A stretch of 64,000 nucleotides of DNA from Candida dubliniensis CD36 (taxonomy: Eukaryota > Ascomycota > Pichiomycetes > Serinales > Debaryomycetaceae). The stretch is taken from assembly GCF_000026945.1 (NCBI RefSeq), contig NC_012863.1, positions 186,001 through 250,000 of the forward strand. Direction: 5' to 3'. The notes under the pieces are model-generated. The model was not told the origin of the DNA. It saw nothing but the letters and a program-made list of their open reading frames with translations, and made no database searches. Positions 45,945 through 64,000 of the stretch are shown here, piece after piece. The position numbers were made by a program, and so were the translations under genes. Each line of letters starts with the position of its first letter. Within the stretch, counting starts at the first letter, position 1.

Positions 45945-46016
45945 TCTCTTGTAGTTTAACGGTCAGAATACGCGCTTGTCACGCGCGTGATCGGGGTTCG
46001 ATTCCCCGCAAGAGAG
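45945..46016 (+). tRNA. tRNA-Asp (anticodon GUC)
   Basis: 72 bases fold as a full cloverleaf. The acceptor stem is TCTCTTG with CAAGAGA, the anticodon stem CGCGC with GCGCG encloses loop TTGTCAC (anticodon GTC, Asp), and the T arm is CGGGG-TTCGATT-CCCCG. The discriminator base is G and there is no intron. A run of five T at 46020-46024 supplies the RNA polymerase III terminator. It lies 110 bp from the lipase stop codon. Confidence 0.97.
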
Positions 46017-46019
46017 TAA

Positions 46020-46024
46020 TTTTT
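46020..46024 (+). terminator. RNA polymerase III terminator of tRNA-Asp
   Basis: T5 four bases after the mature 3' end, backed up by a longer T-run shortly after. Confidence 0.6.
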
Positions 46025-46126
46025 GATTTTTTTTTTTGTTCATTAAATTTTTTTGCAATAATTTGCCCTCTAAAATCAAATTGTAAAACTAATACTACAA
46101 ACAAATACAAACAACCGCTGTCAAAC

Positions 46127-47212
46127 CTAATCTTCATCTCTACAACTAGTGATTCTTCTAAAATAATGTGTATGTTCGTATTTCCCCAAATTATCAGGCC
46201 AAAAAGTCGATGGTCGTATTCCTAAACTTCTTTTCCATAATAATCCGGAATATTCCATACCTCGTCTATCTATATCACATTCTTCATGAGGTAATTGTTT
46301 TTTATCAATAAAATATTCGTATCCTGCATGAGTAAACATTGGTGGTAATAAAGGTATTATATCATGTCTATGAACTACTCTAATAAACCCTCGAGAAAAA
46401 TCATTATCCATGGTAATACAATTACTAACATCTTCTGTATCAAATAATCTATCGGTGAAATCAGCAAATTCTTGATTCCCCACTTTTGGTCCACCATAAG
46501 TGACTACTAATGGATCATAACCTAATAATTGAAATTCAATCCCACTTAAAATGGTAAAAGCTGCACCTAATGAATGACCAATAATTAAAAATTGATAATC
46601 AGGATAAATTTTTTTCAATTTAATTCCAAGACTTATAATTGCCCCGGAATTATCTTTTAAAAAATTATAAAATCCTCGATGAACTTTACAATTAATACAT
46701 TCTTGTTGAATAAATACTTCACATTCATTAAAATTATCATCATGAACAATTGGTTTATATTTCGTGGGGATAAAATCAATATCAGTGGCCCAATCACGTC
46801 TTGATACTGATCCTCTAAATACTAATATTATTGTCTTTCGTTTATTATCCAAGGCATAATATCCAGTACCAACTTCATTAAGTCTACTGAAATCAAATAT
46901 TTTCACAATTTCAACATCTTTAAGAATATCATTTTTACAGGCTGCTAAATGACAACCAGAACCTTTATCTCCTAAACGTCCTTTAGATAATCCTCTACCA
47001 ACACAATAGGCAACTGCAGCCAAATTGGAAAATTGTACTAACTTCTTGTAATCTTGGGCAACAGGTTCATTATCAACCTTATATTCTTGAGCAAATGATA
47101 GACAATATAATACAATGATGATCAATATAAACATCAATAGTAAATAATAGCCAGATGAAAACAAACAAACAAACAAACAACCAACCAAAACAAAAAAAAA
47201 CAAAAAAAACAA
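46127..47212 (-). CDS. Class-3 (triacylglycerol) lipase with secretory signal
   Basis: 361 residues from the first ATG. The alpha/beta-hydrolase lipase-3 domain (about 58-345) has the nucleophile elbow GHSLGAA (Ser214), the loop Asp in RVVHRHDIIPLLPP and a C-terminal His in HTHYF, so the Ser-Asp-His triad is complete. FRGS marks the oxyanion strand and TYGGPKVGN is typical of the family. Cysteines in the domain suggest disulphides and a secretory location. The first 26 residues are encoded by a T-rich tract (mostly Phe/Val/Leu/Cys). Met27 (ATG at 47134) begins a conventional signal peptide and is the more likely start. This family is separate from the LIP1-10 secreted lipases of C. albicans and closer to the YJR107W type. 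Substrate unknown. Confidence 0.85.
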   Translation of the reverse strand: MFFLFFFVLVGCLFVCLFSSGYYLLLMFILIIIVLYCLSFAQEYKVDNEPVAQDYKKLVQFSNLAAVAYCVGRGLSKGRLGDKGSGCHLAACKNDILKDVEIVKIFDFSRLNEVGTGYYALDNKRKTIILVFRGSVSRRDWATDIDFIPTKYKPIVHDDNFNECEVFIQQECINCKVHRGFYNFLKDNSGAIISLGIKLKKIYPDYQFLIIGHSLGAAFTILSGIEFQLLGYDPLVVTYGGPKVGNQEFADFTDRLFDTEDVSNCITMDNDFSRGFIRVVHRHDIIPLLPPMFTHAGYEYFIDKKQLPHEECDIDRRGMEYSGLLWKRSLGIRPSTFWPDNLGKYEHTHYFRRITSCRDED

Positions 47213-47369
47213 AAAAAAAAACGGAAGGTTTCCCTTTATTCTGCTGAAGGAAAAAATAATGGGTATTTTTAATAGTAGTTTGGAACTTCTTTGCTTTAAA
47301 GTAAGGAAAAAGTATTTTCAATCTTATATTAACTTTTGAATTCAATCCTTATATAAAATGATTTCTCTG

Positions 47370-48071
47370 TTATGCACATCTCAGTTCTTGATGTAAATTA
47401 TTACATTTCACACTACAATAATAAAGTCCACAAGATGAACATCTCAGATAATTTGATTTATTACCACAAATACAACAAAGTCTAATTTTCGGTTTAACAT
47501 TTTCCAATTTTCTTCGTTTATTAGTAGTGGTACTAATCGATTTATCATTAATATCGGTGAAATCAACAAATTGATAATTTATTCCAAGTATAGTATTAAC
47601 AGAAATCAAATTTCGTTCTTCTTCAAAATACAGATTCAAATTTCTTCTTGCTGCCAATATTTTCTTTGTCGTTGGAGTATTACCTAATCTTGATTTATGT
47701 GATGTTATAGTATTATCTCCACCACCAGTGGAATGAATACCAGTATAAACAAAATTTTTCGGTAATTCAAATCCTTTAATTGATGTTTCTTGATTTAATT
47801 CAACAAGTCTTTTTAAAACTAATCTTTCTAATTGAATTTGTTGTGATGATTTTAAAGGTCCTGTGTTTGATGGTTCATTGGATTGGGTTTGAGCATTCAT
47901 TAATTGAGTTAAATTATAATTGACTTTAGCTCTTCCCTTGTTAGAACTTGAAATCGATTCACCAGTATTGGAGGATTTACCCAACAGTCGAGCAGTTAGA
48001 TTAATTGATGAGCTGAAATAAATGGTTGATGTCTTGGCATTGGTTGATTTTGGAACTTCTTCGACCAACAT
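47370..48071 (-). CDS. VPS71: HIT zinc-finger protein, SWR1 complex subunit Vps71/Swc6-like
   Basis: 233 residues. The C-terminal 35 residues are a zf-HIT module in C-x2-C, C-x2-C, C-x3-C, H-x3-C order (CCICGNKSNYLRCSSCGLYY, then CSVKC...H...C), ending the protein as in yeast Vps71. A central segment with ILAARRNLNLYFEEERNL is like the linker preceding the finger in Vps71/ZNHIT1. Vps71 helps the SWR1 remodeler load H2A.Z. The N-terminus is Ser/Thr/Asn-rich and disordered. Another HIT-finger protein (Hit1, Bcd1) is the alternative, but their fingers are N-terminal. It is a neighbour of the lipase on the same strand. Confidence 0.75.
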   Translation of the reverse strand: MLVEEVPKSTNAKTSTIYFSSSINLTARLLGKSSNTGESISSSNKGRAKVNYNLTQLMNAQTQSNEPSNTGPLKSSQQIQLERLVLKRLVELNQETSIKGFELPKNFVYTGIHSTGGGDNTITSHKSRLGNTPTTKKILAARRNLNLYFEEERNLISVNTILGINYQFVDFTDINDKSISTTTNKRRKLENVKPKIRLCCICGNKSNYLRCSSCGLYYCSVKCNNLHQELRCA

Positions 48072-48720
48072 TTTTATTGGAGTTAAGCTGAAGTGGGGGG
48101 GTAGGGGAAAGAGTTTATTGATTATGTTTTGAAAATCTTCTTTTTTTTTTTTGTGGTTTATATTATAATTTTGTTTGCCACAGAATTCTTTGTTCTATGT
48201 TCTTCCTTACAATGCACAACGAAAGAATTAGTATAGTAGTATCTCTGGGGAGAGTTAACTGAACATGGATGAAACAAACATCTTAGACAGTCAAATTCTT
48301 ATTTTGAAATACTTTTCTGAGACAAAGTGAAATTGAAGAAAAAGTACCAAAAACAACTTAGAGACTGTCCAATCTGGATAGAATTATGGAGACAGTTTCT
48401 GCATAAATAACAAATTACTTATCTTAATCTATTCCCATGTATAATTCCTGTGCTTTGGAAGAGTATGATAGGACTAGAAGTCGGTATTTATTTTCCAACT
48501 TTTCAATATTTCTATGTTATAAAATAATAAATATATTTACAAGACATTTACAGGTATCTAACATTCCTCTTTTCTTCCTTTCAATAATAAATACAGATAA
48601 AGATCAAGACCAAGACCAAGACCAAGACCTAGACCTAGACCAATTCTAATAACATAATCCAACAAGCTTGACCTGTCTTTACTTTTTTCCTTGATCTTTC
48701 AAAAACCAAATCCTTAAAAA
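48072..48720. other. Intergenic region between VPS71 and MDM35
   Basis: 650 bp. Contains a T-run near 48140-48151 and a GACCAA-type hexamer repeat at about 48605-48640 (AAGACC units). The open frame at 48437-48649 runs into this repeat and is unlikely to be a gene. Confidence 0.55.
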
Positions 48721-48990
48721 TCATTTCTTTTCATTATTTAAACTTTCTTTAATTTCTTCATGATCAAATGGTTGATCTTCTCTAGCTTTATCTAACATTG
48801 GTTTAATTCCTTGTTTTGCTAAATTTGTATTTATACAAGTGATATAAGTATCCCAAAATTCTGTACATTCATTTTCCATTGATTTACCTTTCAAGAATTT
48901 TTCGGTATACCATTTATTAAAACAATCATCATAAGCTTTTTTAGCTGGAGTACATTCTGGAGCAAATGAAACCGACATTATATTTCCCAT
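48721..48990 (-). CDS. MDM35: Mdm35, twin-CX9C intermembrane-space chaperone of Ups proteins
   Basis: 89 residues from ATG at 48990. A longer open frame starts at 49071, but its extra 27 residues are Lys/Phe-rich and come from an A/T homopolymer. The start MGNIMS matches the yeast protein. Two exact CX9C motifs ([11 protein letters not shown] and [11 protein letters not shown]) form the helical hairpin of this small import family (TRIAP1 in animals). Mdm35 binds Ups1 and Ups2 and carries phosphatidic acid or phosphatidylserine between mitochondrial membranes. [11 protein letters not shown] and [17 protein letters not shown] are family-typical. It is divergent from ASK1 with 342 bp between starts. 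Confidence 0.93.
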
Positions 48991-49332
48991 ATCTATAAAA
49001 ATGAATTTTATGAATGTTAGTAGGTTTGCATTTGATTTTGTTCTTTTTTTTTTTTTTTTTTTTTTTTCCAACTACGCCCAGAAACTTCTGGGGTGGTGGA
49101 TGGATGGCGGTGATGATGGATGGATGGTGGGATCTCTTTTCCCGTACTTCGCACAATTCTTTAAAATATGGGACTGCATATAAAACGATACACGCTTTTT
49201 GAAAAAGAAAAAAAAAAAAAACACACTCACCCACAACAAATGGAAAAAACAACAACAACAACAACAACAACGACAACATCCTCATTAACCAAATCTCTAT
49301 TTCTGGGTCAAGATTAAATTATTATATCAAAT
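48991..49332. promoter_or_regulatory. Divergent promoter between MDM35 and ASK1
   Basis: 342 bp shared by two divergent genes. Contains a T-run of about 23 (49045-49067), a TGGATGG-type repeat near 49098-49130, an A-run near 49203-49220 and an AAC microsatellite (49249-49277). Poly-dA/dT tracts on both sides suit a nucleosome-depleted bidirectional promoter. Confidence 0.5.
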
Positions 49333-51138
49333 ATGAAGAGATATTCAATTGCTCCAACTTCATCACGAAGGAAATCTGCTATTGATGCAACATTACCTGA
49401 AACTAATTTACCAGCAAGACAAATATTAGAACAATTAGATCAAGATACTACTTTTGTTCTTCAAGAAATTGATAAAAATATTTCTCGAGCAAATACTGTG
49501 ATTAATGATAAGATTAAACCTATGATACAAGAATATGCATTACAAAGTTGGAAAGTTTGGGAAAATACTGGATTTTGGAAACATTTTTTTGAACAATCAG
49601 CTAATGTTGAATTAGATAGTTATGTTGAACCAATTAATGAAGTGAATCCACAAAATAATTTTTTATTACTTAATGAAATTGAAAAAAATAAACAAAATGG
49701 AAGGTTTGATGATAGTGGTATGACCAATAAAACCAATCAAGGCAATAATGAGAATAATGATATCGAGGATGATCTTGAGGATAAGGAAGAACCAGAAATA
49801 GCATTTAAAAAACCAAATCTTCGACAATTAGTTGCTGATGGGAATACTCCTACATGGTCAACAGAACATACCAAACCATCAATGAAATCAATTCAATTAT
49901 CACCACCGAAAAGAATGAATCCAAATAATTTTACTGGTGGACAAGTTCGAGAAAATACAAAATTGACTGATAGTATAACATTAGAACCACCAGCATTATC
50001 TGCTGAAACTCGAGCTATCACATCACTGCCTCATAATCGTCATAACCAACATCGACTACAATCTAGAGAATCACCAATTAAAATACATACTATTCGACAA
50101 TCTTTAGATACTTATCATCGAGTTTCCATATCACCAAAGAAATTGAAAACACCTATACGCTCGACAAGAACTAGTAGAATTGAAAGTATACTTAATTCAT
50201 CACCCATATTACCAGAACCACCAATTTTACAATCAGAAATAGGTAGTGAAACTCCAAAATATATGTCATCTTCATCACCTAGGAAAGAGCAACAACAACA
50301 ACAACAACAAAAACAGAAAAAAAGAGAATCATTAAATCTCCATTCAGATAATGATCAACAACAACAACAACTTCAAAGATTTCCAAATACTCCTAAATAT
50401 TCTCGATTAAGTGGATCATCAGTGAATAGTTTATTAAGTAATAAATCAAATTTATCAGATGATGATGAAGATGATCATATTAATCCACCACCACAATTAG
50501 ATTCTCATAATCATGGAGTTGTAATTGATAATAGTGATAATAATCATGGAGGTGATGCGGAAGATAGTTCCGATGATCTTGAATCATTACCAGTACCAGA
50601 ATTGAATACTATTGATTTGAAAGATAAGAATAATAATAATAATAATAATAATAAAAGATCAATTCAATCAACACCAAGATCGAATGAAAAAAAGAGAAGA
50701 ACAACAAATAATAACAATAACAATAGCAATGATGATGATGATGATATGGAAAATGTCTTTTTAGATCATTCTAATAAGAAAACTCCAGATAATCAACCAT
50801 CAAATAATTCAACAACAAGATATTTTTCAACTGGAGGTAATAATAATTCTGATAATAATGCTGATAATGATAATGATAATCATACTGAAACTCAAGATAA
50901 TTCAAAATCATTTAGTCAAATTTATGATGAAGCCATTTCTAAAATACGAGGTAAAAAATCAACAATTAAAAATGATGGAAATAGAGATGAAGATATGATA
51001 ATGTCTCTTGATATGACCATGACTAAAGATTTAACTTCTGGTGAATATACCAAAGATTTATCAAAAGATTTAACGGAAAATTCTACTACTGATTTAGGTC
51101 CATTTAAAGAAAGATGGAAAAAATTGACCAGAAAGTAG
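49333..51138 (+). CDS. ASK1: DASH/Dam1 complex subunit Ask1
   Basis: 601 residues. The conserved region is residues 24-100: [20 protein letters not shown], then an Asn/Ile-rich helix and [20 protein letters not shown], matching the Ask1 domain of the DASH ring that couples kinetochores to microtubules. The rest is disordered and much longer than in S. cerevisiae (292 residues), with poly-N, poly-Q, poly-D and a C-terminal basic end. Many minimal CDK sites (SPPKR, SPIK, SPKK, TPIR, SPRK, TPKY, TPRS) fit the known control of Ask1 by Cdk1. The start codon is the first ATG after a stop. Confidence 0.82.
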
Positions 51139-51908
51139 AAATATGATTATATATAAGTTGATAGGTGTTAATAATTGATAATAATGTAATAATAATAATA
51201 ATATTAATAATAATATTAATAACAAAATAGTATTTGTAATGTTTAGTTTCACAAATACATAATACATAATACATAATACATTATATCTTATTCGTTGAAA
51301 CAAAGAAACGTTTCACAACTGAATAAAATCAAAATCAAAATCAAAGTCAAAATCTTGAAATAATTGAAAGAAGAAGTTCAACTAATTAAGAAATTACTAA
51401 TTTGGGTGCAAAAATGAAAAAAAAAAAAGAGAAATAGAATTTTAATATTAAAATCTTCTGGTGTAAGATAGATAAATAGATAGTGCTTTCTTTTTTTTTT
51501 TTTTTCAAGTATTAGTATAATGTATCACGTGACAAACAGTAAGCATGACAAATAAATGAAATTTGATTGGTCCAAGAAAAAAAAGAAAAAAAAAAGAAAA
51601 AAAGAAAAGAGATGATCTCATTACACAAAAGACGGAAATTGATAAATTGATTTATTAAGTTGCAAACAACAACAAACAACAAATAACTAACAACTTGAAT
51701 CACAAAGATATTGCAACAATTTCAATTTCTTAAAAAAAAAAAAAAAAGAATATAAATATCTAATCAAATTTCCTTCATTTCCCCCAAAAATATAAAAAAA
51801 AAAGATTTAATTCCTTCTTTCTTTCATTCTTTTTTTTATTATTATTATTATTATCCTTCAATTTTCATATTCCAATAACTATTTAACTATTTATAATAAC
51901 TATCAATA
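51139..51908. other. Intergenic region upstream of CRD2
   Basis: 770 bp with the ASK1 3' flank and the CRD2 promoter. Holds an ATA/ATT microsatellite (about 51186-51222), repeated ATACATA units near 51255-51280, AAAATC repeats near 51325-51350, A- and T-runs, and a TCACGTGA E-box at 51525-51532. I cannot identify a copper-response (Ace1/Cup2-type) element by eye. Just before the gene is a TTATTA repeat (51837-51855). Confidence 0.55.
51525..51532. promoter_or_regulatory. Palindromic TCACGTGA E-box (Cbf1-type)
   Basis: Perfect octamer about 380 bp upstream of the CRD2 ATG. Cbf1 has roles in sulphur-amino-acid control, plausible for a cysteine-rich metallothionein, but this is inference. Confidence 0.4.
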
Positions 51909-52139
51909 ATGGCTTGTTCTGCTACTCAATGTGTATGTGCTCAAAAATCAACTTGTTCATGTGGTAAACAACCAGCATTAAAATGTAATTGTTCTAAAGC
52001 TTCAATAGAAAATATTATCCCATTATCAAATGATGCTTGTGCTTGTGGTAAAAGAAATAAATCAAATTGTACTTGTGGTGTTAATTCTATTTGTGATGGT
52101 AATAGAGATGGAGAAATTGATTTCACTAATTTGAAGTAA
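51909..52139 (+). CDS. CRD2: Copper metallothionein
   Basis: 76 residues with 12 cysteines, arranged as five CXC pairs (8-10, 16-18, 26-28, 44-46, 54-56) plus single Cys at 3 and 62, in two clusters separated by a Cys-free spacer (29-43). There are no aromatic residues in the cysteine clusters; the only Phe is in the C-terminal tail DFTNLK. Length and layout match C. albicans CRD2, a cytosolic metallothionein needed for growth at high copper. A yeast Cup1-type sequence is not similar in detail. The start is the first ATG, about 10 bp after a TAT-rich leader. It is adjacent to the BMT-family gene with convergent transcription. Confidence 0.9.
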   Translation: MACSATQCVCAQKSTCSCGKQPALKCNCSKASIENIIPLSNDACACGKRNKSNCTCGVNSICDGNRDGEIDFTNLK

Positions 52140-52788
52140 ATAAATGAAAAAGGTTTAATGATGAGAATCTTTGGGTTATGTTTCAAAAAAAGAAGTGCAT
52201 TTAATTTTTTGGTTTCGATTTTTATTTATTTATGTAAAAAAAAAAGTATAATAACAAATTTAATAAAGATTGGGTTTTTTTTTGGTTTTAGTTTTTTAAA
52301 ATTATCTCTATTTTGTAATTTAATTATCAATTGGATCAAAAAGAATGAATGAGGAGAGGGAGGGAACAAAAGGGAAGAAAGGAAACGTGGGATTAGTTTA
52401 TTTATTCTCTAGTAGCAAGAGCCAATCAAAACCCAAGCAAAAGCCAAGCAAGCAATAATAACAATAAAAGTTTATCAATGTTGCCCTTTCCGAGTAAATT
52501 AACTATGAATACAAAGAACAACTATTCAATAAGATTCTTAATTTTGAGGAGGTTGTTATTGTTGTTGATAAATTGGTTGAATAGCAACAACCATCCAAAA
52601 AAAAAAAAAAAAAAAAAAATAATTGTATACAACTGTATATCTAATCTAATCTAATCTAATCTAATCTAAATTATCAAAATATAATAAATAAGGGGGAAGG
52701 AGGGAGGGGAAGGAAATTCAATTAACAATTATTACCCCACCCCTCTTTCCTCTCTTTCTCTCTCTCTTTCTTTCTCCCTTACTTGGAA
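52140..52788. other. Convergent intergenic region between CRD2 and BMT-family gene, with TCTAA array and purine/pyrimidine tracts
   Basis: 650 bp between two stop codons. It contains an A-run at about 52598-52618, six tandem TCTAA units (52640-52669), a purine-rich block (about 52689-52717) and a pyrimidine-rich block (52735-52780). No gene is evident. Confidence 0.6.
52640..52669. repeat. Tandem pentanucleotide repeat (TCTAA)6
   Basis: Six copies of TCTAA in perfect tandem. A shorter degenerate version is seen near 56396-56415. Such arrays are common slippage products. Confidence 0.85.
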
Positions 52789-53025
52789 TCATTCTGACCC
52801 TTTATCTTTTTCTTTCTGTTTTTCTTTATTTTGAAATTCATCTTCAATTTTTAATGTCTCTCCATATATTTGACAATATTTATGAGAATATTGTAAAGCA
52901 CAATCAATATTTTTATTAATATTACTATCATCATCATCATTTATTAAATTACCATGGAAAAAAATTGAACTTTTAAAAATACTTGATTTCCCAATACCAT
53001 CACCATCACCACCACCATTAATTTG

Positions 53026-53058
<33 letters not shown>

Positions 53059-55290
53059 GTGGTTTGGGTTTAATGATAATAATGCATTTAATAATCCTTT
53101 TATATATACAAGATCAATAGTTGCATCACGTCGAGTAATTGTTAATATCAAATAATCCATTAAATTATTTACTTTTAATTTTGATTTTGATTTTAATTTT
53201 GATTCAATTTCATTTTCATTTTCATTTTCAATTGTCCAACTTGATATCCCATTAGGTATTACAACATTATTTCCTTTACATAATCCTTGATCTTCCCACC
53301 ATGGTAATATTTCAATACCTAAATCCATAAATGATGAAACATGAGTTAATTTATATTTTGATTCACCAAAACCAAAACCAGAATCGGTGGTGGAGGTGGT
53401 AGTGGTAGTAGTAGTAGTAGTAGTAGTATCTTTAATTAATATTACCATATTTGGTCGATACATTTTTTCTCCACAACCACAATTTTTCATTGCTGCTCGA
53501 GCAAATCCAATCCATAATTGACGATTTGAAGGTAATTTATCTTTAATTGAATTTATTAATTGTTTACCATTACCAAAAATTGAACTTGAACTTGAACTTG
53601 ATGATATTGTTGATGTTGATGATAAATAATTTTCTAATATTTCATTGATATTAATTAATTCAGTACCACCATGTAAATATCCTGAATCAAATTTATTATC
53701 ATCATGAATTTGATATTCCCATTGACAACCATTATCATTATCATTATCATTATCATTTTCTTTGTTATTGTTGGTTGTGGTGGTGGTGATTGGACATTTC
53801 AAAATTTTTAAATTTTTAAATTGATAAATAAAATAAATAAATGAATGATAACCATCAATTAATTTTTCTTGATGATTTAAAAATAATGACCAATTTTTTT
53901 CTATTAAATTCTGTTGATTATTAGGTCGAGTTAATTGTTTAATTTTAATATATTCATTCTTTTTACTATAATCAATATCTGATAATTGTTCAAGATTAAA
54001 TTTTCCAATTTGAGTTTGCCATAACCAACCAATAAATAATGACCGATAATTTTTAAAATTAATTTTCCCTTCTTGATCATTATCATGATTATTATCATGA
54101 TCGATTTTCAGAATTTTCCTATGATGAGAATTATAAATTATAATTGGTTCTTCATAACCAAATTCATTTTGAATTAATATAATTCTTGGATCTTCAACTC
54201 CATAAAATTGTCGTCCATTATTTTTTTTTAATTGTTTAATATTATGATAAATTGGTATTGGAGCAAAATAAGGATAAATTATTGATTTATATTTTAATTG
54301 TTTATCATTATTTTCCTTATTATTATTATTATCCTTATTATAATTTGGTTTTGAATTTGATTTTGGATCTGGGATAATCAATTCAACATCATTTAATTCA
54401 TTCCAATTTCTATCAAATAATTGTAAATAAGCTAAAGATATTATTGGTAATCCTTGATCTTTTTCAGTATAAATAATTCTTGAAATCATTAAATGAACTC
54501 CATATTGTTGTAACCATACTGTTGATCCAATAAATTGATACCAATGTTTTTTAATTATATCATCATTATCATCATCATTGTTATCATTATTATTACTCAA
54601 TTGTAATTGTTCTTTTAAATTAGGGAAAAATGGTGAAAATTCTTGGAAATATGGACCATCATCTTGTAAAAATCGAGTTAATATTTGTCTTAAATTACCA
54701 TTTTTATTAATTGCTCGACTTGTTTTAATATTAATTTGATTTGATAATTTCAGGCATTGTGAAGATGATTGTTCATTATTATTATTTATATCATCACTAA
54801 ATAATTCAAATTGTTGAGTTGAATAACTAAATTGAGGAATTTTATAATCAAATCGATTACGATAAATTAAATCTTGAGGATTTAATGCTTGATTCATAAT
54901 TTCAGTATAATATTTAACTAATTGATCATCTTTAATTAAAGGGAAATTATTGGGGAAAATAATTATACGTTTATCTTTCTTCTTGTTGCCTTTGTTGTTG
55001 TTGTTGTTGTCCAATTGATGTTGATCAATTTCTTGTTGTAATTTATCTTGTTGCTTTGGTGATGATGGTTTAAATGGTTTAAATGGTTTATTGGAAGTTG
55101 TACTAATAGTGGTAGTGAAGGGGGTAAACTTTTCTAAATCATATTTTACTGTTATAGTGGTGGTTAATATTATTAAGATTAAGGAAATTATGAAAAGAAT
55201 ACTAATTATTGATTTATAATGTTTAATTGAGATTTTTCGAGAAGATGATAAGGATAATAATGATGTGGTAGATTTAATAAGTTTCTCCAT
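52789..55290 (-). CDS. Beta-1,2-mannosyltransferase family protein (BMT/WRY), type II membrane protein
   Basis: 833 residues. A short cytosolic N-terminus, one membrane anchor (about 27-48, ISILFIISLILIILTTTITV) and a lumenal domain fit a Golgi type II glycosyltransferase. Conserved family blocks include WYQFIGSTVWLQQYGVHLMISRI, RQFYGVEDPRIILI, RSLFIGWLWQTQIGKF, SGYLHGGTELI, LWIGFARAAMKNCGCGEKMYRPNM and LPWWEDQGLCKGNNVVIPNGI. BMT enzymes add beta-1,2-mannose to wall mannan or phospholipomannan and are typical of the Candida clade. The protein is swollen by Asn/Asp, Thr and Ser tracts. The closing residues are Lys/Glu-rich. Which of the nine C. albicans BMT genes it matches cannot be told. It starts 15-30 bp from a TA repeat. 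Confidence 0.85.
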
Positions 55291-55321
55291 TATAGGACAA
55301 GAAGATATATATATATATTTG

Positions 55322-55346
55322 CGGGTGTGTGTGTGTGTGTGTGTGT
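55322..55346. repeat. GT dinucleotide microsatellite
   Basis: About 11 GT units following a TA repeat (55304-55318), just upstream of the BMT-family start codon, so it lies in its leader or proximal promoter. Confidence 0.85.
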
Positions 55347-55542
55347 ATAAACGAATGGAAGGAATAATTGGAACTACTCTTTCAGAAGTTAAGGAGGAGG
55401 TCAGTAGTATATATATATATGTAGAAGTGTAGAATATTTTTAGGGGTTGGAAAGAATATCAACAACATCAACAACAATTTACAAACTCAAACTAAACCAA
55501 ACATTGGAACTTACGAAGAATTACACAAAATGAAAAAAATAT

Positions 55543-55590
55543 AGTAGTAGTAGTAGTAGTAATAGTAGTAATAGTAGTAGTAGTAGTAGT
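55543..55590. repeat. TAG/AAT trinucleotide microsatellite
   Basis: Repeated TAG units with two TAA interruptions. A second trinucleotide repeat (AAC)11 lies at 55747-55779. Confidence 0.8.
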
Positions 55591-55746
55591 TTTTTTTTTA
55601 CTTTTTCAACTTTCGGCGTTATCGTATTTATATTAAATCATAGTAGACGATCTAATAAAAGATTTATAATCATCATCGATTAATTGGATGTACATATAGA
55701 CATTGAATTAATGTTAGTTGATGATTGTAATCATTGTTAAAAAAAT

Positions 55747-55778
<32 letters not shown>

Positions 55779-56506
55779 GAAAGTATCAGCTATAGATCAT
55801 AAAAAGATTGAAATGTTTTGAAAAAATAAATTAAGTTCCTTCCTCCCTCCCTTTCTTCCCTCCCCCTTGAAGATGAAGAGGACAATTTCGAATTTTCGGA
55901 ATTGCAAAAAAAAAAAAAGAAATGTTTTCTCTTTTCTTTCCTTTAGTACACACATCATATTAACAACTAATTAACAGTCAACTATTATTATCATCATCAT
56001 CATAGATCATTACCACTAAATTATAGATTTATTAGTTTAAGATTTTAAATTGTTATAAATTGTTTTAAATTGTTTGTTTTTTTTAGTCTGTTTAAAAGAT
56101 TTAGTAATTTATTGAGTTCTACTTTTATTCAACAATTGTCCAAATTTAGAACAACCGCCTTAGATATATTAAATAGTGAAATTAATCCTCCTCCTCCCCA
56201 TTACACAAAGAAAGTCCGGTAATATCTCTTTTCAGATACTCATGTAGAGTTATATATGTTGAATCATAAAGAGATTATTTAGACTATAGATTGATATTTT
56301 AGTATCACCATTAAACTTAGTCATTTTTCTTTGTTTAGTCTAATTAATCGAACGATACAATATCATTTTTTATTGGTTTCCGTTACTAAACTTCAATCTA
56401 ATCTAATGTAATCTAAAAAAGAAGGCAAACTAAAATTAGTGTTCTTATTTTTTTTATTTTTTATAGATGATTAAATCGTAATCAAAAAAAAAAAAAATGT
56501 TTTTAT

Positions 56507-56532
56507 GGGGGTGGGGGTAGGGGGTGGGGGGG
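56507..56532 (+). other. G-quadruplex-type motif (G5-T-G5-TA-G5-T-G7)
   Basis: Four guanine runs of five or more with loops of one or two bases, meeting the strict quadruplex pattern with very short loops. It sits in a gene-free region. Confidence 0.75.
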
Positions 56533-57163
56533 AGAGAGTTAAGAGAAAAAAAAAAAACAAGTGACTAACCATTTGTCACAATGTAGCGCTATTTAATTTA
56601 AATGACAATGATATTTACGGTACTGATTCACGTACAATGTGAATACTCACGCAGTTTCTGGTGGTTGGCTAAAAAGTAGTAAATCAATGCTATTGGATGT
56701 ATGGGGAATAATGGACACAGTGACTAAGTGTAAGTCTTCGGGATACCTCTATTCCGTACGAGTGTAATATATGTGGATTGTATGTATTTGTATATTCCTG
56801 GATCTCAGCCTAAGCTTGCATAAGGTCCATTCTAACTAAATAATTAATTTTCTAGATTTTCTTTACTTAAATAGAATTCAACCTTTTCGTGCGTGTGTGC
56901 ACCAATTATTCTATTCACTCACACACTCACACTTAAATCCTTTTTAACTAATTCAACACTTTCTCTCTAATAACAATTCTCTTCTTTATGTGCGATTTAC
57001 CAACAAACGTAATTATTCTTTCAAATGATTCTCTCTGTCGTGTGATAGTACCAAATATAGCATATTTAAAAGATTACTATCCACTACACGACACCATTCA
57101 TTGTTTAATTTTTTTTTGGCAATTTAACAATTTAACAATTTAACAATTTAGTGGTTTAGTGGT

Positions 57164-57419
57164 TGTTGTAAAACAGGATCTGCAATATTTTATGTGCAGT
57201 CCTTTTTGAATTCAACTCCAGGGAGTTCGACGAATCCTTTATAATTGCTATTTTATTATTCTCTATTATATACTACTTCTCTTTGTAAAAAAACAATTCA
57301 TATTTTTTTATTACTTTCAATTTATTACATACTGATAATTAGCTTCGAATCTATAGAAAGTTAGAGCAACATATATTGTCCGTCGTAATATCTAATTAAT
57401 AAAACCTAGGAATACTTCA
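57164..57419 (+). repeat. Left LTR, inverted relative to the element
   Basis: 256 bp in plus orientation, starting TGTTGTAAAAC and ending AATACTTCA. A normal minus-strand element would carry this LTR in the opposite orientation. By eye it differs from the right copy at about five bases and three single- or two-base indels (about 97% identical). Confidence 0.9.
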
Positions 57420-60400
57420 GAAGCTTGTACCAATTGATCACGATAATTGCTCAGTTGAGTAGAAATTCCCATGGCTAAGAAGTAAAAAAGGGGCATGGAC
57501 CATGAATGGTGGGAGTACTATTATAAATCTGGACAGCTTTGTAAAGAACAGAATCCCAAAATTTGGTAACAGTGGACCAAATTAATCCACGAAGTATGCG
57601 TTTTATGTGAGCCCATTGGTTGGCACGTTCCACCCGGCCATTACTGACAGGATGAATAATTTGATGTATGAATAAGCTTCACAAAATGATGTTTGTCACC
57701 ACAGTTGAAACATCACTAGCAATGAATTGACGACCATTATCACAAATAACTTTGTTGGGGGTAACTGTGAATTTGAGAAATAAGTTGGAGTAAGCTCACT
57801 ACGGTGGCACTGGTTTGGTGCAATGTTGGAACGGCATAAAGTAAACCAGTAGTATATTCCACAGTGACAAGAATGTAAGAAGCATTAGGTGAACCTTGAA
57901 GAGGACCAACATAATCAAATGCTCAACGGGGTGAAAGCTGGAACAGGTTCTAAGGGGATAATTTCACGCCGAGCCAGTGTGATGGGGGGGGGGCTGTTTG
58001 TTGGCAGATAGAGCAGTGTCGTACGGTGTTGATAGTGATAGGTGGGCTGTCGGGATGCCATGCAATCTGAGTGGCAAAATAATGAGTAATCCTGATGGAT
58101 GGATGGGTGGTAGTGGTGGTGGTGGACAGATTGCACGAGCTTTGGTGAAGTTGTCCCGCAGAAACACTGGTAGTACTTGGTTTTGAAGAATCACCTCAAG
58201 TTCATCGTTGATAACAGTAAAGTGATGTAATGGTAAGTCATCATTGGTTGTGAGCAGTGGTAGAATCCGAAAAATCTGAAGAATTGGTGGCAAGGGATGT
58301 TGGATCCAGAAGTTGATCCTTAATGGCTTGAAGATGATTGTCGTTGAGGTCGGACAATTGGAGTGAAGCGACTGCAGAAGGTTTGGGGAACCGTTAAAAC
58401 ATTATGGGGGGGGGGGTTGAGAATTTCATCTTCGTTAACTACCTCAGTTATCGAATCCGTTTGGTAACGGCTACGGAAATCCGCTAGGATATTTTGCTTC
58501 CCAGCCAAGTAAAATATACGTGGCTGGTAGGACGTGAGGACATCCAAGAAACAGTGAACTCTTAAATTTGGTTGAGCAGCAGAATTCAACATTACCAGTA
58601 GGGAATAGTGGTCGGTATAGATGTACAACGGACCACCAGTTAAATGACGATTCTTTACAATCGTAGCCACAATGGGCTAACAACTCACGTTCCATAGTTG
58701 AGTATCGCAGTTGTGTCGGTGTCAATTTAGCACTAAAAAAATGAAATTGGAACAAGTGTGGTAGATCCCTTGTGGTTATGTGATTGACAGATGACAACAC
58801 CAACAGCCAATGTGGAGGCATCAGTAAAAATATGGGTAACTTTACTGGGGGGGGGTTATAATGCCCGAGTGGGGGGAGATGGTAGTGAGGCAAGATTTGA
58901 GATCGTTGAAAGCCTTGATTGACTCGTCAGTATGAGTTATTGGACCTTTTCGAGATGACCCACCTTTCAATAATTCAGACAACGGATGAAGAAGAGTTGC
59001 CACACACGAGGAATATAAGATCGAATAAAGCTAACAAATGAAATAAGACTTCTAACTTCCGACTTGGTGGATGGGAGTTGCCAATGTGAAATAGATGCAA
59101 TTTTATCTGGGTCTACCTTAGTACCTTCTTCGGAGATAATAAAGCCTAAAAATTTAACAGATTTTTCTGTAACAATTTGGTTTTGTCAATGTTAATTTGG
59201 AGACCAGCATTATTAAGTGCTTCACATACTTGTTTCACAATGCGAGCATTATCTTCAACAGTCTTGGCATAGATTAATACATCATCGAGATATAAAAAAG
59301 ATTCCCTCAATGTCTTTTAGCACGGTACTTATAAAGTTACAAAAAAAAACGCATATGGTGAATTTGTAGCCCCGAAGGGTAACGTTTGGTAGACATAGTT
59401 ACCGAGATGGGTAACGATGCCAAAAGCGTGGGAGGTACGTGGCGTAACGCTTATCTGATGATAAGCCGCCTTTAAATCGATGGTACTAAACCATTTAGCC
59501 TGGTGGACCAAGGGAGCCAAATCACGAAGATTCGGAACATAATATGGGATGTTTTTTTTTTTTGGTTATGGCATTGAGACGCCTAAAATCAATGACCACT
59601 CTGGCTTTATTAGCTGTACGAACAACAAAAACAGCTGATAATGAGATTTGGTACATTATCAGGAGCATGCAGTAGGATACCAGCCTCCAAGTTTTGTTTG
59701 TTTAATAAATAATTCAATAACTTCCTTGTATTGTGCATTACAAAAATAAGGTTTGGAAATTACCGGTTGGTCATTCGTGAGTACAATGTGATATTTGAAC
59801 TGGCGATTTTTAGGTTTTGCGAGTGGTTTGGTCGGTGAGTTGAGGATAATTTTGTTTGATGTTAGCTATCAAGGAGAGTCGTGGTTGAGTGTGGACAGCT
59901 TTGGACACTGAAAGCTTTAGATTATTAACAAACCGTTCAAGAGTACAATTATATATATCTGTGGCCGGCAATAGTTTTATAAACTCGTGGGTTGGAGTTA
60001 GTTGGTAATGAAGTTTTTTTGAGAGTCGGACGACCAAAAAATAATCTTTCTTAGGCCTGGCAACACATAGGCCTGAAATTGGAGTTTAAATGGTTTGGTA
60101 ATAGTGAAGTTAACACTATGAGTAATCTGATGATGCTTGTTGGTTGTCGTAGTGGCCATAATTAATTGGTTGATCAAGTTTAGTGAGTCGACCCATCTTA
60201 GCAATAGCGGGCGGTAGGAAATTTGAATCGCCCCCCCCAGAATCCAATAACACCGGGGGAAAACCCATTTCCAATATCAATAGCGGCAACATGTTTAGGC
60301 GTAACGAGGCCTCGCTGAATCGTCAGAATAAGTTGAGTCGGGGTTAGATTCGTTGCCCGAGTCATAAGGAGCCTCGGAGACAGCATCAGAACCATCCAGA

Positions 60401-60479
60401 TCATCAGCCTCTTGGTCAGCCACATCCAATTCATAAAGTTATTTACCTTGGTGTTGAGCACGCGAGTAGTCGCCTCGGA
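57420..60479 (-). pseudogene. Broken pol (protease, RT, RNase H, integrase) of the retrotransposon
   Basis: On the minus strand: protease LDSG motif at about 60236-60250. RT follows, with FSTIDLKAAYHQI and PFGATNSPYAF at 59500-59345 and the catalytic YLDD at 59282-59293, followed by VLIYAK. RNase H comes next, with FFSAKLTPTQLRYSTMEREL near 58735-58680 and the YLAGKQNILADFRSRY connector at about 58510-58460. The integrase finger has HCSIC near 58020, and the integrase core has FDYVGPLQGSP (about 57910), VICDNGRQF (about 57735) and NGRVERAN (about 57635). Frames shift repeatedly, often in homopolymers (C9 at 60230, A9 at 59341, G8-G12 at 58851, 58406, 57986). The integrase C-terminus and any polypurine tract are absent: the coding sequence ends at the left LTR. 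Confidence 0.8.
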
Positions 60480-61963
60480 ATTTGGTGTAACGAGATTTAG
60501 GTTGAAAATTGTTCGACTGGTATGTAAGAAGAACGCTGGTTGGAACGACGATAATTGTTACGGGCGATAATTGTTACGGCGATAATTGTTACCATAAGAC
60601 TTGGACTTATAACGGGGGGGGGGGTTAGAATTTTGATCCCGATATTGCGGTTGGTAATTGTTGTTTCTAACATAGTTGACTTGAAAATCGTTGGTGGGCA
60701 AATCCTCGGGGAAATTGATGTTATGAAAAAATGTGATTCAACCGTTTGTAAAAAAAAAAAAGATCAGGTGGGTTGACATAATCAAGCGAGTGAAGAGAAA
60801 GGAGGACAGCAAAGTGATCTTCCAATTTTCTGCAAAATAAGCGATCTTTCTTGTGATGAATCTATTCCGGTAAGGAATAAGATTGTTGGCAAGTTGTCTA
60901 AAAACGAGCAATGAACAGGGTAACTGGCTCGCCAGGGGGTTGGCAGCAACAGATACATTTGGGTTACAGTTTTTTTCTGTCCAATAATTCCCAGTTACGA
61001 ATCAAATAAATATGGTAATCAATATCTAACCAAAGAAATTTGTGGTCCAAATCGGGTATTGAAGTGCTGTTTGGAAAGCATTAATCAAATCATCTTTAAG
61101 ATAGGGTGCAGCAGCATGAGCCCAAAATTTGGTAATCCAAATTCATACTAACAAAGTAACTTTGCAATTGTTGGAACTTTGAAAACAAGATGGTCGTCAT
61201 CAGAATTGGTAATCAGAAAAGCATCAACAATAGGGGGGAGGGGGGGGGGGAGGTTTTGTTGTTCAGGGAGCCATTGCATTTGAGGAGCTTCTTGGACCAT
61301 TCATGAACGTTGGCATAACCCTCCGAATTTTGGGCAGCAATTTCACGTGGGGAAACTGGGGGAAGGGTTCGTCCTCATAAGGTTCAAATCCAAACTCATT
61401 AAAGAGGTGCACCATAAGCCTGAGGTGGCGGTGGACCAAAAAGCATGGTCAGCAGTTGGAGGAACAACATCCCATTGACCTGGAGGAGCATCATTATCAT
61501 GACCAAAGGTTGGATTGGAACGTTGTTTTCTCCATTTTTTGGCAGCCAATTCATCAACCTTTTTGAGCAGTGGCTTGAATAAATTCAGCGTGAGCGTCAA
61601 CATGCTCATCAAACATGGTCAAATTTTTTTTTTTTCCTGGGCTCCCTCGACAATACGTTTGGCTTGGTTATCCAAAACGTCTTCTCTCTCACGGTTGACG
61701 GCAATAGCTTCAGCTTGAGCAGCATTGGTCTCATTGATAACCTTATAGATTTGGTTAGTGATAGTTTCGCCTTGTTGTTTGAACATTTCCATCATTTGTT
61801 GACGAAATTCCCGCAAATTGGTTTCAGCAGTAACAAACATTTGGGCTTCAGGACCTGGATCAGTAGTTTGTCCAGCAGCTTCTTCAGCAGCATGATGAAG
61901 TGGTAGCTGGGGTTTCAGGAACAGATTCCTGTGTTCTTGTTCTTCTTTCTGGTTTCTAGCCAT
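60480..61963 (-). pseudogene. Broken gag of the retrotransposon
   Basis: The gag frame opens with ATG at 61963, 79 bp inside the right LTR, and shows a helical N-terminal segment (residues 1-114, rich in Glu, Gln, Ala). It breaks at a T-run (61623-61635; poly-A on the coding strand). A second frame (61612-61343) continues with KPLLKKVDELAAKKWRKQRS and a Pro/Trp-rich stretch. Later parts are in other frames after G-runs (about 61231-61251, 60605-60615) and an A-run (60750-60760). The gag end is Asn/Tyr/Arg-rich (NNYRR units), a basic nucleic-acid-binding tail rather than a CCHC zinc knuckle that I can see. Not translatable as it stands. Confidence 0.7.
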
Positions 61964-62042
61964 GACGAAAGGTTGCAGAAATTCGCTTAAAGTTTAAAGT
62001 TTTGCTTAAAGTTGATAATAAAGTTCCAGAAAATTAATTTTA

Positions 62043-62298
62043 TGAAGTATTCCTAGGTTTTATTAATTAGATATTACGACGGATAATATAGGTTGCTCTA
62101 ACTTTCTATAGATTCGAAGCTAATTATCAGTATGTAATAATTGAAAGTAATAAAAAAATATGAATTGTTTTTTTTTACAAAGAGAAGTAGTATATAATAG
62201 AGAATAATAAAATAACAATTATAAAGGATTCGTTCAACTCCCTGGAGTTGAATTCAAAAGGACTGCACATAAAATATTGCAGATCCTGTTTTACAACA
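62043..62298 (-). repeat. Right LTR (5' LTR of the minus-strand element)
   Basis: 256 bp whose reverse complement starts TGTTGTAAAAC and ends AATACTTCA, immediately upstream of the gag leader. It is correctly oriented to transcribe gag-pol leftward. It contains an inverted repeat TTCAACTCC-AG-GGAGTTGAA. Confidence 0.92.
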
Positions 62299-64000
62299 TG
62301 GTTTAGTGGTTTAGTGGTTTAGTGGTGGTGATGGTGATGGTGATAAGAAAAGTTTTCATTGTTAATAGAATAAAGAGATCGACCATTTTATCCATTCTCT
62401 CTAACAAAAAGGAATGATTAATCTATTCATACATGTACATACATACATACATACATACATAAATATCAAACCTCCACAATTTAGGAATTCAAGTGTATAT
62501 ATATTCATTGTTGATCGTTGATAAGAAACTATCTATATGGGTAAAACTATTCCATATTCCAAGCAGTTTAATGAAATCTATAATATAAATTCATATAAAT
62601 TCAATTCTAATTATGTCTTAATTCTTAATTCTTATAATCAGTGCTGCCAGATTCACCTTTTAAATACTTATTAGTTAACTCAACCAAAGAATATAAATTT
62701 TTCTTTGAGTTATTATTCTCTACTCTTCCTCCTTTTATTATTATTATTGTTAATCATTAATTATTGATAAATTTCATCTATAATAATACAATGGAACTTA
62801 ACTCATTATATTCACTTTATCAACTTTATCAACTATATCAAAAATACCTACATGTATTAGTATTAGTATTAGTATTATTATAGCATTCTTGATCATTAAG
62901 GTCACGTGCAAGCAAGTTTTTTGGAAATTTCCTTGAACTTTCCTTGAACTTTCCCTACTAAAACAAAAGATCTCTCTTTCTCTCTCTCTCTCACTCTCTC
63001 TCAAAAAAAAAAAAAGCAAAACTATACCCCATTTACCACTTATCTTGTAAATAGAATTTTTGTATAATAAAGCATTATCACCAATATTATTTCATTAAAC
63101 CAAAAAAAGCCAAAAAAAAAAGGCTTAATTGCAATTGCAATTGCAAATGAATCTTTATTCAAGATATAAAGTTGTTGTTGTTGACGACCGTTATTTTGTT
63201 TTTTTTTTTTTTTCTTTTCTTTTCTTTTTTCTTTATGGGAAGTAAGTAATTACAAACCTTCCTTCCTTCCCCCTCCCCGCAGTCACGTGACATGATGACA
63301 ATATCTATTCAATTTTAAATGCCGATAAATAATTATTATTAATGTATTGCATGTATGTATAAATGGGGGGGATTAGATGGAATTATGTTTCAAAGAGCTG
63401 TGGTGGTGCGGGTAGAGAGAGAGAGAGAGAAACATGAAATTTGCCAATGTTTTTGAGACGCGTCTCGAAACAAACAAAGATCGACACAAGAAAAGAAATT
63501 GTTCTAGACCTTTACTCTACCGAGGAATATATTGTATTGTATGGTGAACTTCTTCATATGAGTTGATAAATCCGCCTTTAGTACATATAGGGGCGGCAAA
63601 TGAAAATTTAGCCAAAAAAAAAAAAAAAAAAACTAAAGATTATATACAAGAAACCGCTAATACAATTACAATTACTACTATTACTACTACTTCTATAAAT
63701 ATCGGGTATTGTTCTATATTTAGTTACTCCTATTGTTATTATTGTTGTTGTTGTTGTTGCTGTGGTGGTGGTGATTAGTTGCAGTTTTAACTTCTTCGTC
63801 TTCTTCTTCTCCTTTAATCCGCGTGATCTGATAATGTCTTGTCTTGTGTTTGGTACACGACATTTGCCTATTGGGTAGAGAGAAAGAAACTGGGCTGAGT
63901 TTGTTAATAGATCAGAATAATCCATTAATTCTTTCTTTTTCTTAGTTGAGAATATTCTCTCTTTTTTTTTCTTTCTTTTTTTTTTACCTAATTAGGTTAA
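62299..64000. other. Gene-free right end of the window
   Basis: 1.7 kb from the retrotransposon to the window edge. Starts with TTTAGTGG units and GGTGAT repeats (62320-62343). It holds an ATAC repeat (62437-62460), TCTCTC repeats (62971-63000), a TCACGTGC site (62902-62909), a perfect TCACGTGA at 63283-63290, a GAGA tract (63416-63430), an A-run near 63615-63632 and a GTT repeat (63741-63760). The open frames at 63563-63778 and 63608-63925 overlap on opposite strands, are low-complexity and are not supported. It is probably promoter for a gene beyond the edge. Confidence 0.5.
63283..63290. promoter_or_regulatory. Palindromic TCACGTGA E-box (Cbf1-type)
   Basis: Perfect octamer in the right-hand gene-free region. 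Its target gene would lie outside the window. Confidence 0.35.

What the first reader, a model, noticed from the sequence alone, without database searches (positions are those of the whole stretch)
57164..62298. Ty3/gypsy retrotransposon bounded by inverted, not direct, LTRs
The two 256-bp LTR copies share the same ends (TGTTGTAAAAC and AATACTTCA) and are about 97% identical by eye, but the left copy is the reverse complement of what a minus-strand element should have. LTR retrotransposons normally have direct repeats. Inverted terminal repeats belong to DIRS-type elements, yet this internal region encodes protease, RT, RNase H and a D,D,E-type integrase. Either the element was rearranged, a second LTR was captured in reverse, or an unusual reverse-transcription product integrated.
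Basis: seen in the sequence. Interest (0 to 1): 0.8.

Follow-up and report, generated by a model that had tools for sequence, protein, structure and literature searches.

The report
Yeast retrotransposon with flipped LTR
A dead copy of a known kind of yeast jumping gene carries one of its two end repeats back to front, in a layout that matches what would form if its DNA copy had attacked itself before settling in the chromosome; it is an unusual dead end, not a new kind of element, and reads across the junctions still have to confirm it.

Summary
Confirmed in the assembly: two 256-bp LTRs (57164-57419 on +, 62043-62298 on -), 96% identical, in opposite orientation around a broken gag-pol on the minus strand. 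Host: Candida dubliniensis (name). The element is Tca3-like Ty3/gypsy, not DIRS. New: (1) it lacks the integrase C-terminus and polypurine tract that three short sister copies keep; the flipped LTR is joined by its U5 terminus to antisense integrase sequence. (2) Both outer ends are U3 termini flanked by TGGT/TGGT, a 4-bp duplication as in 9 of 11 other independent insertions tested; removing it restores a perfect 8-bp array (chance 1 in 8). (3) The flipped LTR has no duplication of its own. (4) The three other LTR-bounded copies found have direct LTRs. Best reading: a rearranged cDNA (inversion-type autointegration layout, minus the segment between the two U3 ends) inserted in one step. Main rival: assembly error, favoured by the break lying within a few bases of the short copies' deletion joint. 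Unasked but odd: this and several other dead retroelements here are broken almost only by small, mostly tandem insertions (34:0 frame-breaking in the parts of this copy that could be compared).

The parts
57164..57419 (+). Left LTR, 256 bp, flipped: U3 terminus TGTTG outward, U5 terminus CTTCA inward
57420..62042 (-). Internal region: broken gag, protease, RT, integrase; ends inside integrase; lacks integrase C-terminus and polypurine tract
57420..57425 (.). Inner joint: LTR end CTTCA followed by GAAGCTTGTACC; antisense integrase sequence agrees with relatives from AAGCTTGTACC on, the G before it does not
57422..57642 (-). Integrase end still present, aligned to P0003 (87% over 69 codons; 6 frame-breaking insertions, 0 deletions)
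59164..59556 (-). Reverse transcriptase core (RVT_1)
   Evidence: G000:C5:245164-245556, 69.4 bits; piece 59332-59565, E 7.9e-9
59964..60253 (-). Protease region, aligned to the N-terminal part of P0003 (85% over 93 codons; 4 frame-breaking insertions, 0 deletions)
   Evidence: P0003 RVP 19.3 bits, below cut-off 20.7
60298..61963 (-). gag, aligned to the 538-aa relative P0002 (86.6% over 529 codons; 24 frame-breaking insertions, 0 deletions)
62043..62298 (-). Right LTR = normal 5' LTR, 256 bp, U3 terminus outward
57160..57163 (.). Target duplication, left copy TGGT
62299..62302 (.). Target duplication, right copy TGGT
57120..57163 (.). Left part of the period-8 array (CAATTTAA, then TTTAGTGG) in which the element sits
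62299..62326 (.). Right part of the same array, (TGGTTTAG)n

Best explanation
A Tca3-like LTR retrotransposon made a faulty linear DNA copy before insertion: the U5 end of an LTR was joined to the antisense strand inside the integrase gene of the same or a sister copy, as in inversion-type autointegration ('retrotransposon suicide'), and the stretch from that joint to the polypurine tract was lost. The product, LTR(U3 to U5) / antisense integrase-to-gag / reversed LTR(U5 to U3), has a U3 terminus at each end and was inserted into a TTTAGTGG array in one step with the family's usual 4-bp duplication. Shown: the layout, exact U3 termini outside, a U5 terminus at the inner joint (one base unexplained), the missing 3' segment, the 4-bp match. 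Inferred: that integrase made the inner joint (end joining of an LTR fragment would look the same), that it used two U3 ends on the chromosome, and that the loss came before insertion. The element is dead.
For: Layout and exact termini. Outer flanks TGGT/TGGT; exact 4-bp matches at 12 of 14 other copies tested, 9 of 11 independent insertions (four degenerate or partial copies, L030-L033, left out before the count). Taking out the insert and one TGGT restores a perfect 41-base period-8 run; removing any other number of bases from 0 to 8 gives 21 to 29. The left LTR alone has no duplication, against a nested solo LTR. Integrase C-terminal and polypurine-side sequence is present in the three short copies and absent here; a search with it found it only in those three (best candidates scored). 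An autointegration circle with two inverted LTRs is described in PMC4751563 (passages); the present structure equals it without the segment that lies between the two U3 termini (my derivation).
Against: One case only. The duplication match has a 1-in-8 chance in this array. One base between the U5 terminus and the agreeing integrase sequence differs from relatives (G for A). The two LTRs differ by 5 substitutions and 3 indels, while the LTR pairs of the short copies differ by 0, 0 and 1 (my count), so either the insertion is old or the LTRs came from two RNAs. The break lies within about 5 bases of the integrase joint of the short copies, a coincidence that this model does not explain. PMC4751563 itself reports no sign of autointegration among Ty circles of S. 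cerevisiae but for a single read fitting the truncated-circle form, none fitting the inverted form (passages), so the route is rare at best there. A search for a protein crossing the inner joint found no candidate, a weak test.
Confidence: 0.55

Rival explanations
1. Assembly or finishing error: the real copy is an ordinary direct-LTR element; the segment shared with the short copies was lost and the left LTR was placed backwards.
For: The inner break coincides, within about 5 bases, with the point where sequence shared with the three short copies begins; contigs tend to break at repeat borders (general knowledge). The element, and the solo LTR beside it, carry an excess of small insertions, which could mean poor consensus in this stretch. 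No reads could be examined.
Against: The left LTR equals none of the other LTRs found: it has its own combination of differences, so reads longer than the LTR (Sanger reads of several hundred bases, recalled) should have crossed a joint. Both of its ends would have to be misjoined exactly at LTR termini. The insertions are mostly tandem duplications, 14 of 17 in the compared LTR plus gag, and reach 24 bp in L056; 5 are shared between two loci on different contigs (L057 and L060), so simple base-calling errors do not explain them all.
Confidence: 0.22
2. Rearrangement after insertion: a second plus-strand element or solo LTR nested in integrase recombined with another plus-strand LTR at the left border, deleting everything between.
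For: LTR-LTR recombination is common: of the 23 matches, 15 are single LTRs or fragments and 8 belong to four LTR-bounded copies. It would keep both termini exact.
Against: Needs two insertions into the same short 8-bp array, in phase, plus a nested one. The outer 4-bp match would be accidental.
Confidence: 0.15
3. The inverted LTRs are a functional trait of the lineage, as in DIRS-type elements.
For: Orientation only.
Against: The three other LTR-bounded copies found have direct LTRs; the copy has integrase-like sequence and a 4-bp target duplication; reading frames are broken; three pol pieces match nothing else in the genome.
Confidence: 0.02

Closest known systems
Tca3 of Candida albicans (placed in the Ylt1 lineage of Gypsy elements by PMC2864245, one passage)
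   Same: Gag, protease, RT, integrase in this order; 85-87% identity to proteins P0002 and P0003 from unnamed read assemblies. That these are Tca3, and that this element is its counterpart, is my inference; no Tca3 sequence was named by any search
   Different: Inverted LTRs; integrase C-terminus and polypurine tract missing
Inversion-type autointegration product, 2-LTR-inverted circle (PMC4751563, passages; the original papers it cites were not read)
   Same: LTR U5 end joined to antisense internal sequence, second LTR reversed, both U3 termini facing the omitted segment (my derivation)
   Different: Here chromosomal, with that segment missing and a 4-bp target duplication; the passages describe extrachromosomal circles
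DIRS-1-like retrotransposons (recalled)
   Same: Inverted terminal repeats
   Different: DIRS elements use a tyrosine recombinase and make no target duplication (recalled); here integrase-like sequence and a 4-bp duplication
Internally deleted direct-LTR sister copies L016, L017, L018
   Same: Same family, deletion border at the same place in integrase, LTRs 91-93% identical to those of this copy
   Different: Direct LTRs, polypurine side kept, one intact 395-aa frame

Membership tests
Ty3/gypsy LTR retrotransposon (Tca3-like) | Reverse transcriptase domain | tested here: met
   RVT_1, piece 59332-59565, E 7.9e-9, over cut-off
Ty3/gypsy LTR retrotransposon (Tca3-like) | Integrase downstream of RT | tested here: met
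   Alignment to P0003 at 57422-57642; the overlapping relative P0004 matches PFV and Ty3 integrases (E 0.00095 and 0.0038); its Pfam integrase matches are below cut-off and window pieces gave none
Ty3/gypsy LTR retrotransposon (Tca3-like) | Direct LTRs | tested here: not met
   met in the sister copies
Ty3/gypsy LTR retrotransposon (Tca3-like) | Polypurine tract next to 3' LTR | tested here: not met
   Present in L016-L018, absent here
Ty3/gypsy LTR retrotransposon (Tca3-like) | Short target duplication | tested here: met
   TGGT/TGGT, in a repeat array
DIRS-type element | Inverted terminal repeats | tested here: met
DIRS-type element | Tyrosine recombinase in place of integrase (recalled) | tested here: not met
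   Integrase-like sequence present; no recombinase among the Pfam matches of the window pieces tried
DIRS-type element | No target duplication (recalled) | tested here: not met
   4-bp match, 1-in-8 chance
Autointegration product | LTR end joined to internal site in antisense | tested here: met
   CTTCA joined to antisense integrase, one base unexplained
Autointegration product | Duplication of the internal target at the other LTR end | not testable with these tools
   The segment that would carry it is missing
Autointegration product | Integrase dependence | not testable with these tools
   Needs an experiment

The most novel reading that the evidence does not exclude
Autointegration of a yeast LTR retrotransposon is not always a dead end: a self-attacked cDNA with two U3 termini can still be inserted into the chromosome by integrase with a normal target duplication, leaving a head-to-head 'inverted-LTR' fossil.
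Probability: 0.33. Interest if true: 0.6.

Novelty: new variant of a known kind. Interest (0 to 1): 0.42.

Why it matters
If the junctions are real, this is a chromosomal record of an aberrant reverse-transcription or self-integration product of a kind described as extrachromosomal circles in the passages read, and suggests that integrase can insert a DNA with two U3 ends. It gives a concrete signature (U5 terminus in antisense internal sequence, both outer ends U3, normal duplication, missing polypurine side) that can be searched for in other genomes. LTR finders that require direct repeats would miss such copies.

Tried and rejected
DIRS membership: rejected (integrase-like sequence, duplication, direct-LTR sisters). 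Nested solo LTR in integrase: rejected as a simple account, since the left LTR has no duplication of its own. Inversion between the left LTR and the related solo LTR L023 (C5:1469689-1469964), which lacks a duplication too: swapping U5 neighbours does not give matching duplications (reasoned). Pure sequencing error for the many insertions: first favoured, then weakened by insertions shared by two loci and by multi-base tandem duplications; not excluded. Inverted pieces in L050, L057 and L060 first looked like further inverted-LTR elements; they belong to LINE-like elements (judged by eye from the 1151-aa frame of their relative L062; the name Zorro is recalled) and were dropped as LTR controls. 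Search for a protein crossing the inner joint in independent data: no candidate.

Papers. In the listings (20 of 71 shown; 15 of 297; 12 of 40; 1 of 1; 4 of 4) I saw no title or abstract start describing a chromosomal inverted-LTR copy of this kind; passages were read in PMC4751563, PMC6189423, PMC2151762 and PMC5065131, the last three not to the point; PMC5633606 was seen in the listing only. No paper holds C. dubliniensis, retrotransposon and Tca3 together (0 papers); others (19; 4; 12 of 15,773 shown) were read as listings; PMC2864245 and PMC7175516 as passages. On insertion-biased decay only a listing (12 of 46 shown). The library misses most subscription papers; Goodwin and Poulter 2000, the C. 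dubliniensis genome paper (its DOI recalled) and Garfinkel 2006 are not held.

Full report
What is there. The window lies in an 8-contig, 14.6-Mb genome. A 395-aa protein identical to that encoded by the sister copies of the element is named 'transposon polyprotein (fragment), putative [Candida dubliniensis CD36]' by a source, on a contig of the same length as C2, so the host is taken to be that yeast. At 57164-62298 two 256-bp LTRs stand in opposite orientation around coding remains on the minus strand. Identity of the two LTRs is 96.2%.

Comparison within the genome. The left LTR has 23 matches (counts are lower bounds). Eight of them form four pairs: the window copy and three further copies (C2:2041974/2043480, C4:306943/308450, C4:750951/752458); those three are direct and bound elements of about 1.76 kb that join the first 213 codons of gag to the integrase C-terminus, followed by a purine-rich tract and the 3' LTR. 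Four pieces of the internal region were searched: the gag piece matches the three short copies and itself, the three pol pieces match only the window. In three other LTR families seven pairs that lie within 7 kb are direct (520-bp family two; L065 family two; L072 family three, one of them interrupted). One pair in opposite orientation was seen, C8:888668 and C8:895435, but the second is only 72% like the query and the first already has a direct partner at C8:882603; I take them as separate insertions.

What is missing. Relatives P0003 and P0004 continue ...YRDQLVQAFPP... through the integrase C-terminus to the end of the frame. The window copy follows them to ...YRDQLVQA and then runs into the reversed LTR. 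The short copies' deletion joins gag ...VQA to integrase FPP..., at a shared GTNCAAG, so both breaks fall at the same few bases. This coincidence is the best argument for an assembly fault at a repeat border; a natural hot spot for strand switching is the alternative.

Ends. The family makes 4-bp duplications: 12 of 14 copies tested, or 9 of 11 if four copies with the same flanks are counted once. L023 and L024 lack one; L030-L033, old or partial, were left out. The window element has TGGT on both outer sides. The site is an 8-bp array, so the chance match is 1 in 8; removing exactly 4 bases is the only choice from 0 to 8 that restores the array (41 bases in perfect period against 21-29). The left LTR by itself has no duplication.

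Mechanism. In inversion-type autointegration, cDNA ends attack an internal site so that the U5 end of the 3' LTR is joined to antisense internal sequence that runs back to the reversed 5' LTR, whose U3 end is joined to the rest (PMC4751563 names the inverted 2-LTR circle in passages read; the detailed order is my derivation). The plus strand of the window reads LTR U3-U5, antisense integrase to gag, LTR U5-U3: the same order, without the segment from the joint to the polypurine tract. That segment would lie exactly between the two U3 termini. Loss of it before insertion would leave a linear DNA with two U3 ends, and the 4-bp duplication suggests that integrase inserted it. Whether integrase or end joining made the inner joint cannot be told. 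The differences between the LTRs, partly shared with the solo LTR L023, leave room for two parent molecules. Against this route: the same paper found no sign of autointegration in S. cerevisiae Ty circles beyond one read of the truncated-circle type.

State of the copy. Against relatives, gag has 24, protease 4 and the integrase end 6 frame-breaking insertions and no frame-breaking deletion; RT, RNase H and the rest of integrase had no close relative at hand and were not counted. Against the short copies, LTR plus gag shows 17 insertions and no deletion. Substitutions in 213 gag codons are 19 changing and 7 silent (27% silent against 21% expected at random); with P0002 as outgroup 13 residue differences fall on the window copy and 4 on the short copies. 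The copy is dead and shows no sign of selection since it parted from the short copies.

Verdict. It is a dead, rearranged member of a known kind, most likely a fossil of a self-damaged cDNA. Without reads the assembly rival stays at about one in five.

Noticed in passing
window 57164-62298; L056 (C8:883500-889000); L057 (C1:83500-89000); L060 (C5:981000-985500); L050 (C4:263000-270000): Dead retroelements of several unrelated families are broken almost only by small insertions. Frame-breaking insertions to deletions in the parts aligned: window 34:0, L057 34:0, L060 9:0, L050 5:0. DNA level: L056 40 private insertions to 1 deletion with 55 derived substitutions, its sister L068 1 to 2 with 110; L057 39 to 2 over three blocks; 36 of 40 in L056 are tandem duplications or slippage, sizes 1-24 bp. 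Five insertions are shared by L057 and L060 on different contigs. Against a general rule: L058, L066, L067, L071 and L072 differ by 0-11 extra stretches per side without clear bias, and four diverged solo LTRs L083-L086 show 7 insertions to 5 deletions. Cause unknown: local insertion-biased mutation or poor consensus.
   Followed up: partly
window 56574-57096: Solo LTR of another family beside the element. Aligned with 10 near-identical copies it has 4 private insertions and those 10 have 1 between them (2 if four diverged copies are added), so the insertion excess may be a trait of the place rather than of the element.
   Followed up: partly
L016 743-1930 (-), L017 828-2015, L018 828-2015: Three short direct-LTR copies keep one intact, identical 395-aa frame that fuses the N-terminal part of Gag to the integrase C-terminus: non-autonomous copies with an unbroken frame.
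   Followed up: partly
L057 1992-3022: LINE-like element with an internal 1-kb segment inverted in place; twin priming is a possible cause (recalled).
   Followed up: no
L050 241-1355 and 4487-5601: LINE-like locus with 1.1-kb inverted arms, 97% complementary, 3.1 kb apart.
   Followed up: no
L019 (C6:1232114), L020 (C4:1854554), L021 (C4:10697), L022 (C7:13162): Four solo LTRs with the same flanks, all within about 14 kb of a contig end: probably a shared subtelomeric block.
   Followed up: no
window 44000-64000: 38 of 51 tandem-repeat rows lie in the last 20 kb of the window, where GC falls to 25-26% at 50-56 kb.
   Followed up: no
L023 = C5:1469189-1470464: Solo LTR sharing odd insertions with both window LTRs, with private insertions including a 10-base block, and no target duplication.
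   Followed up: partly
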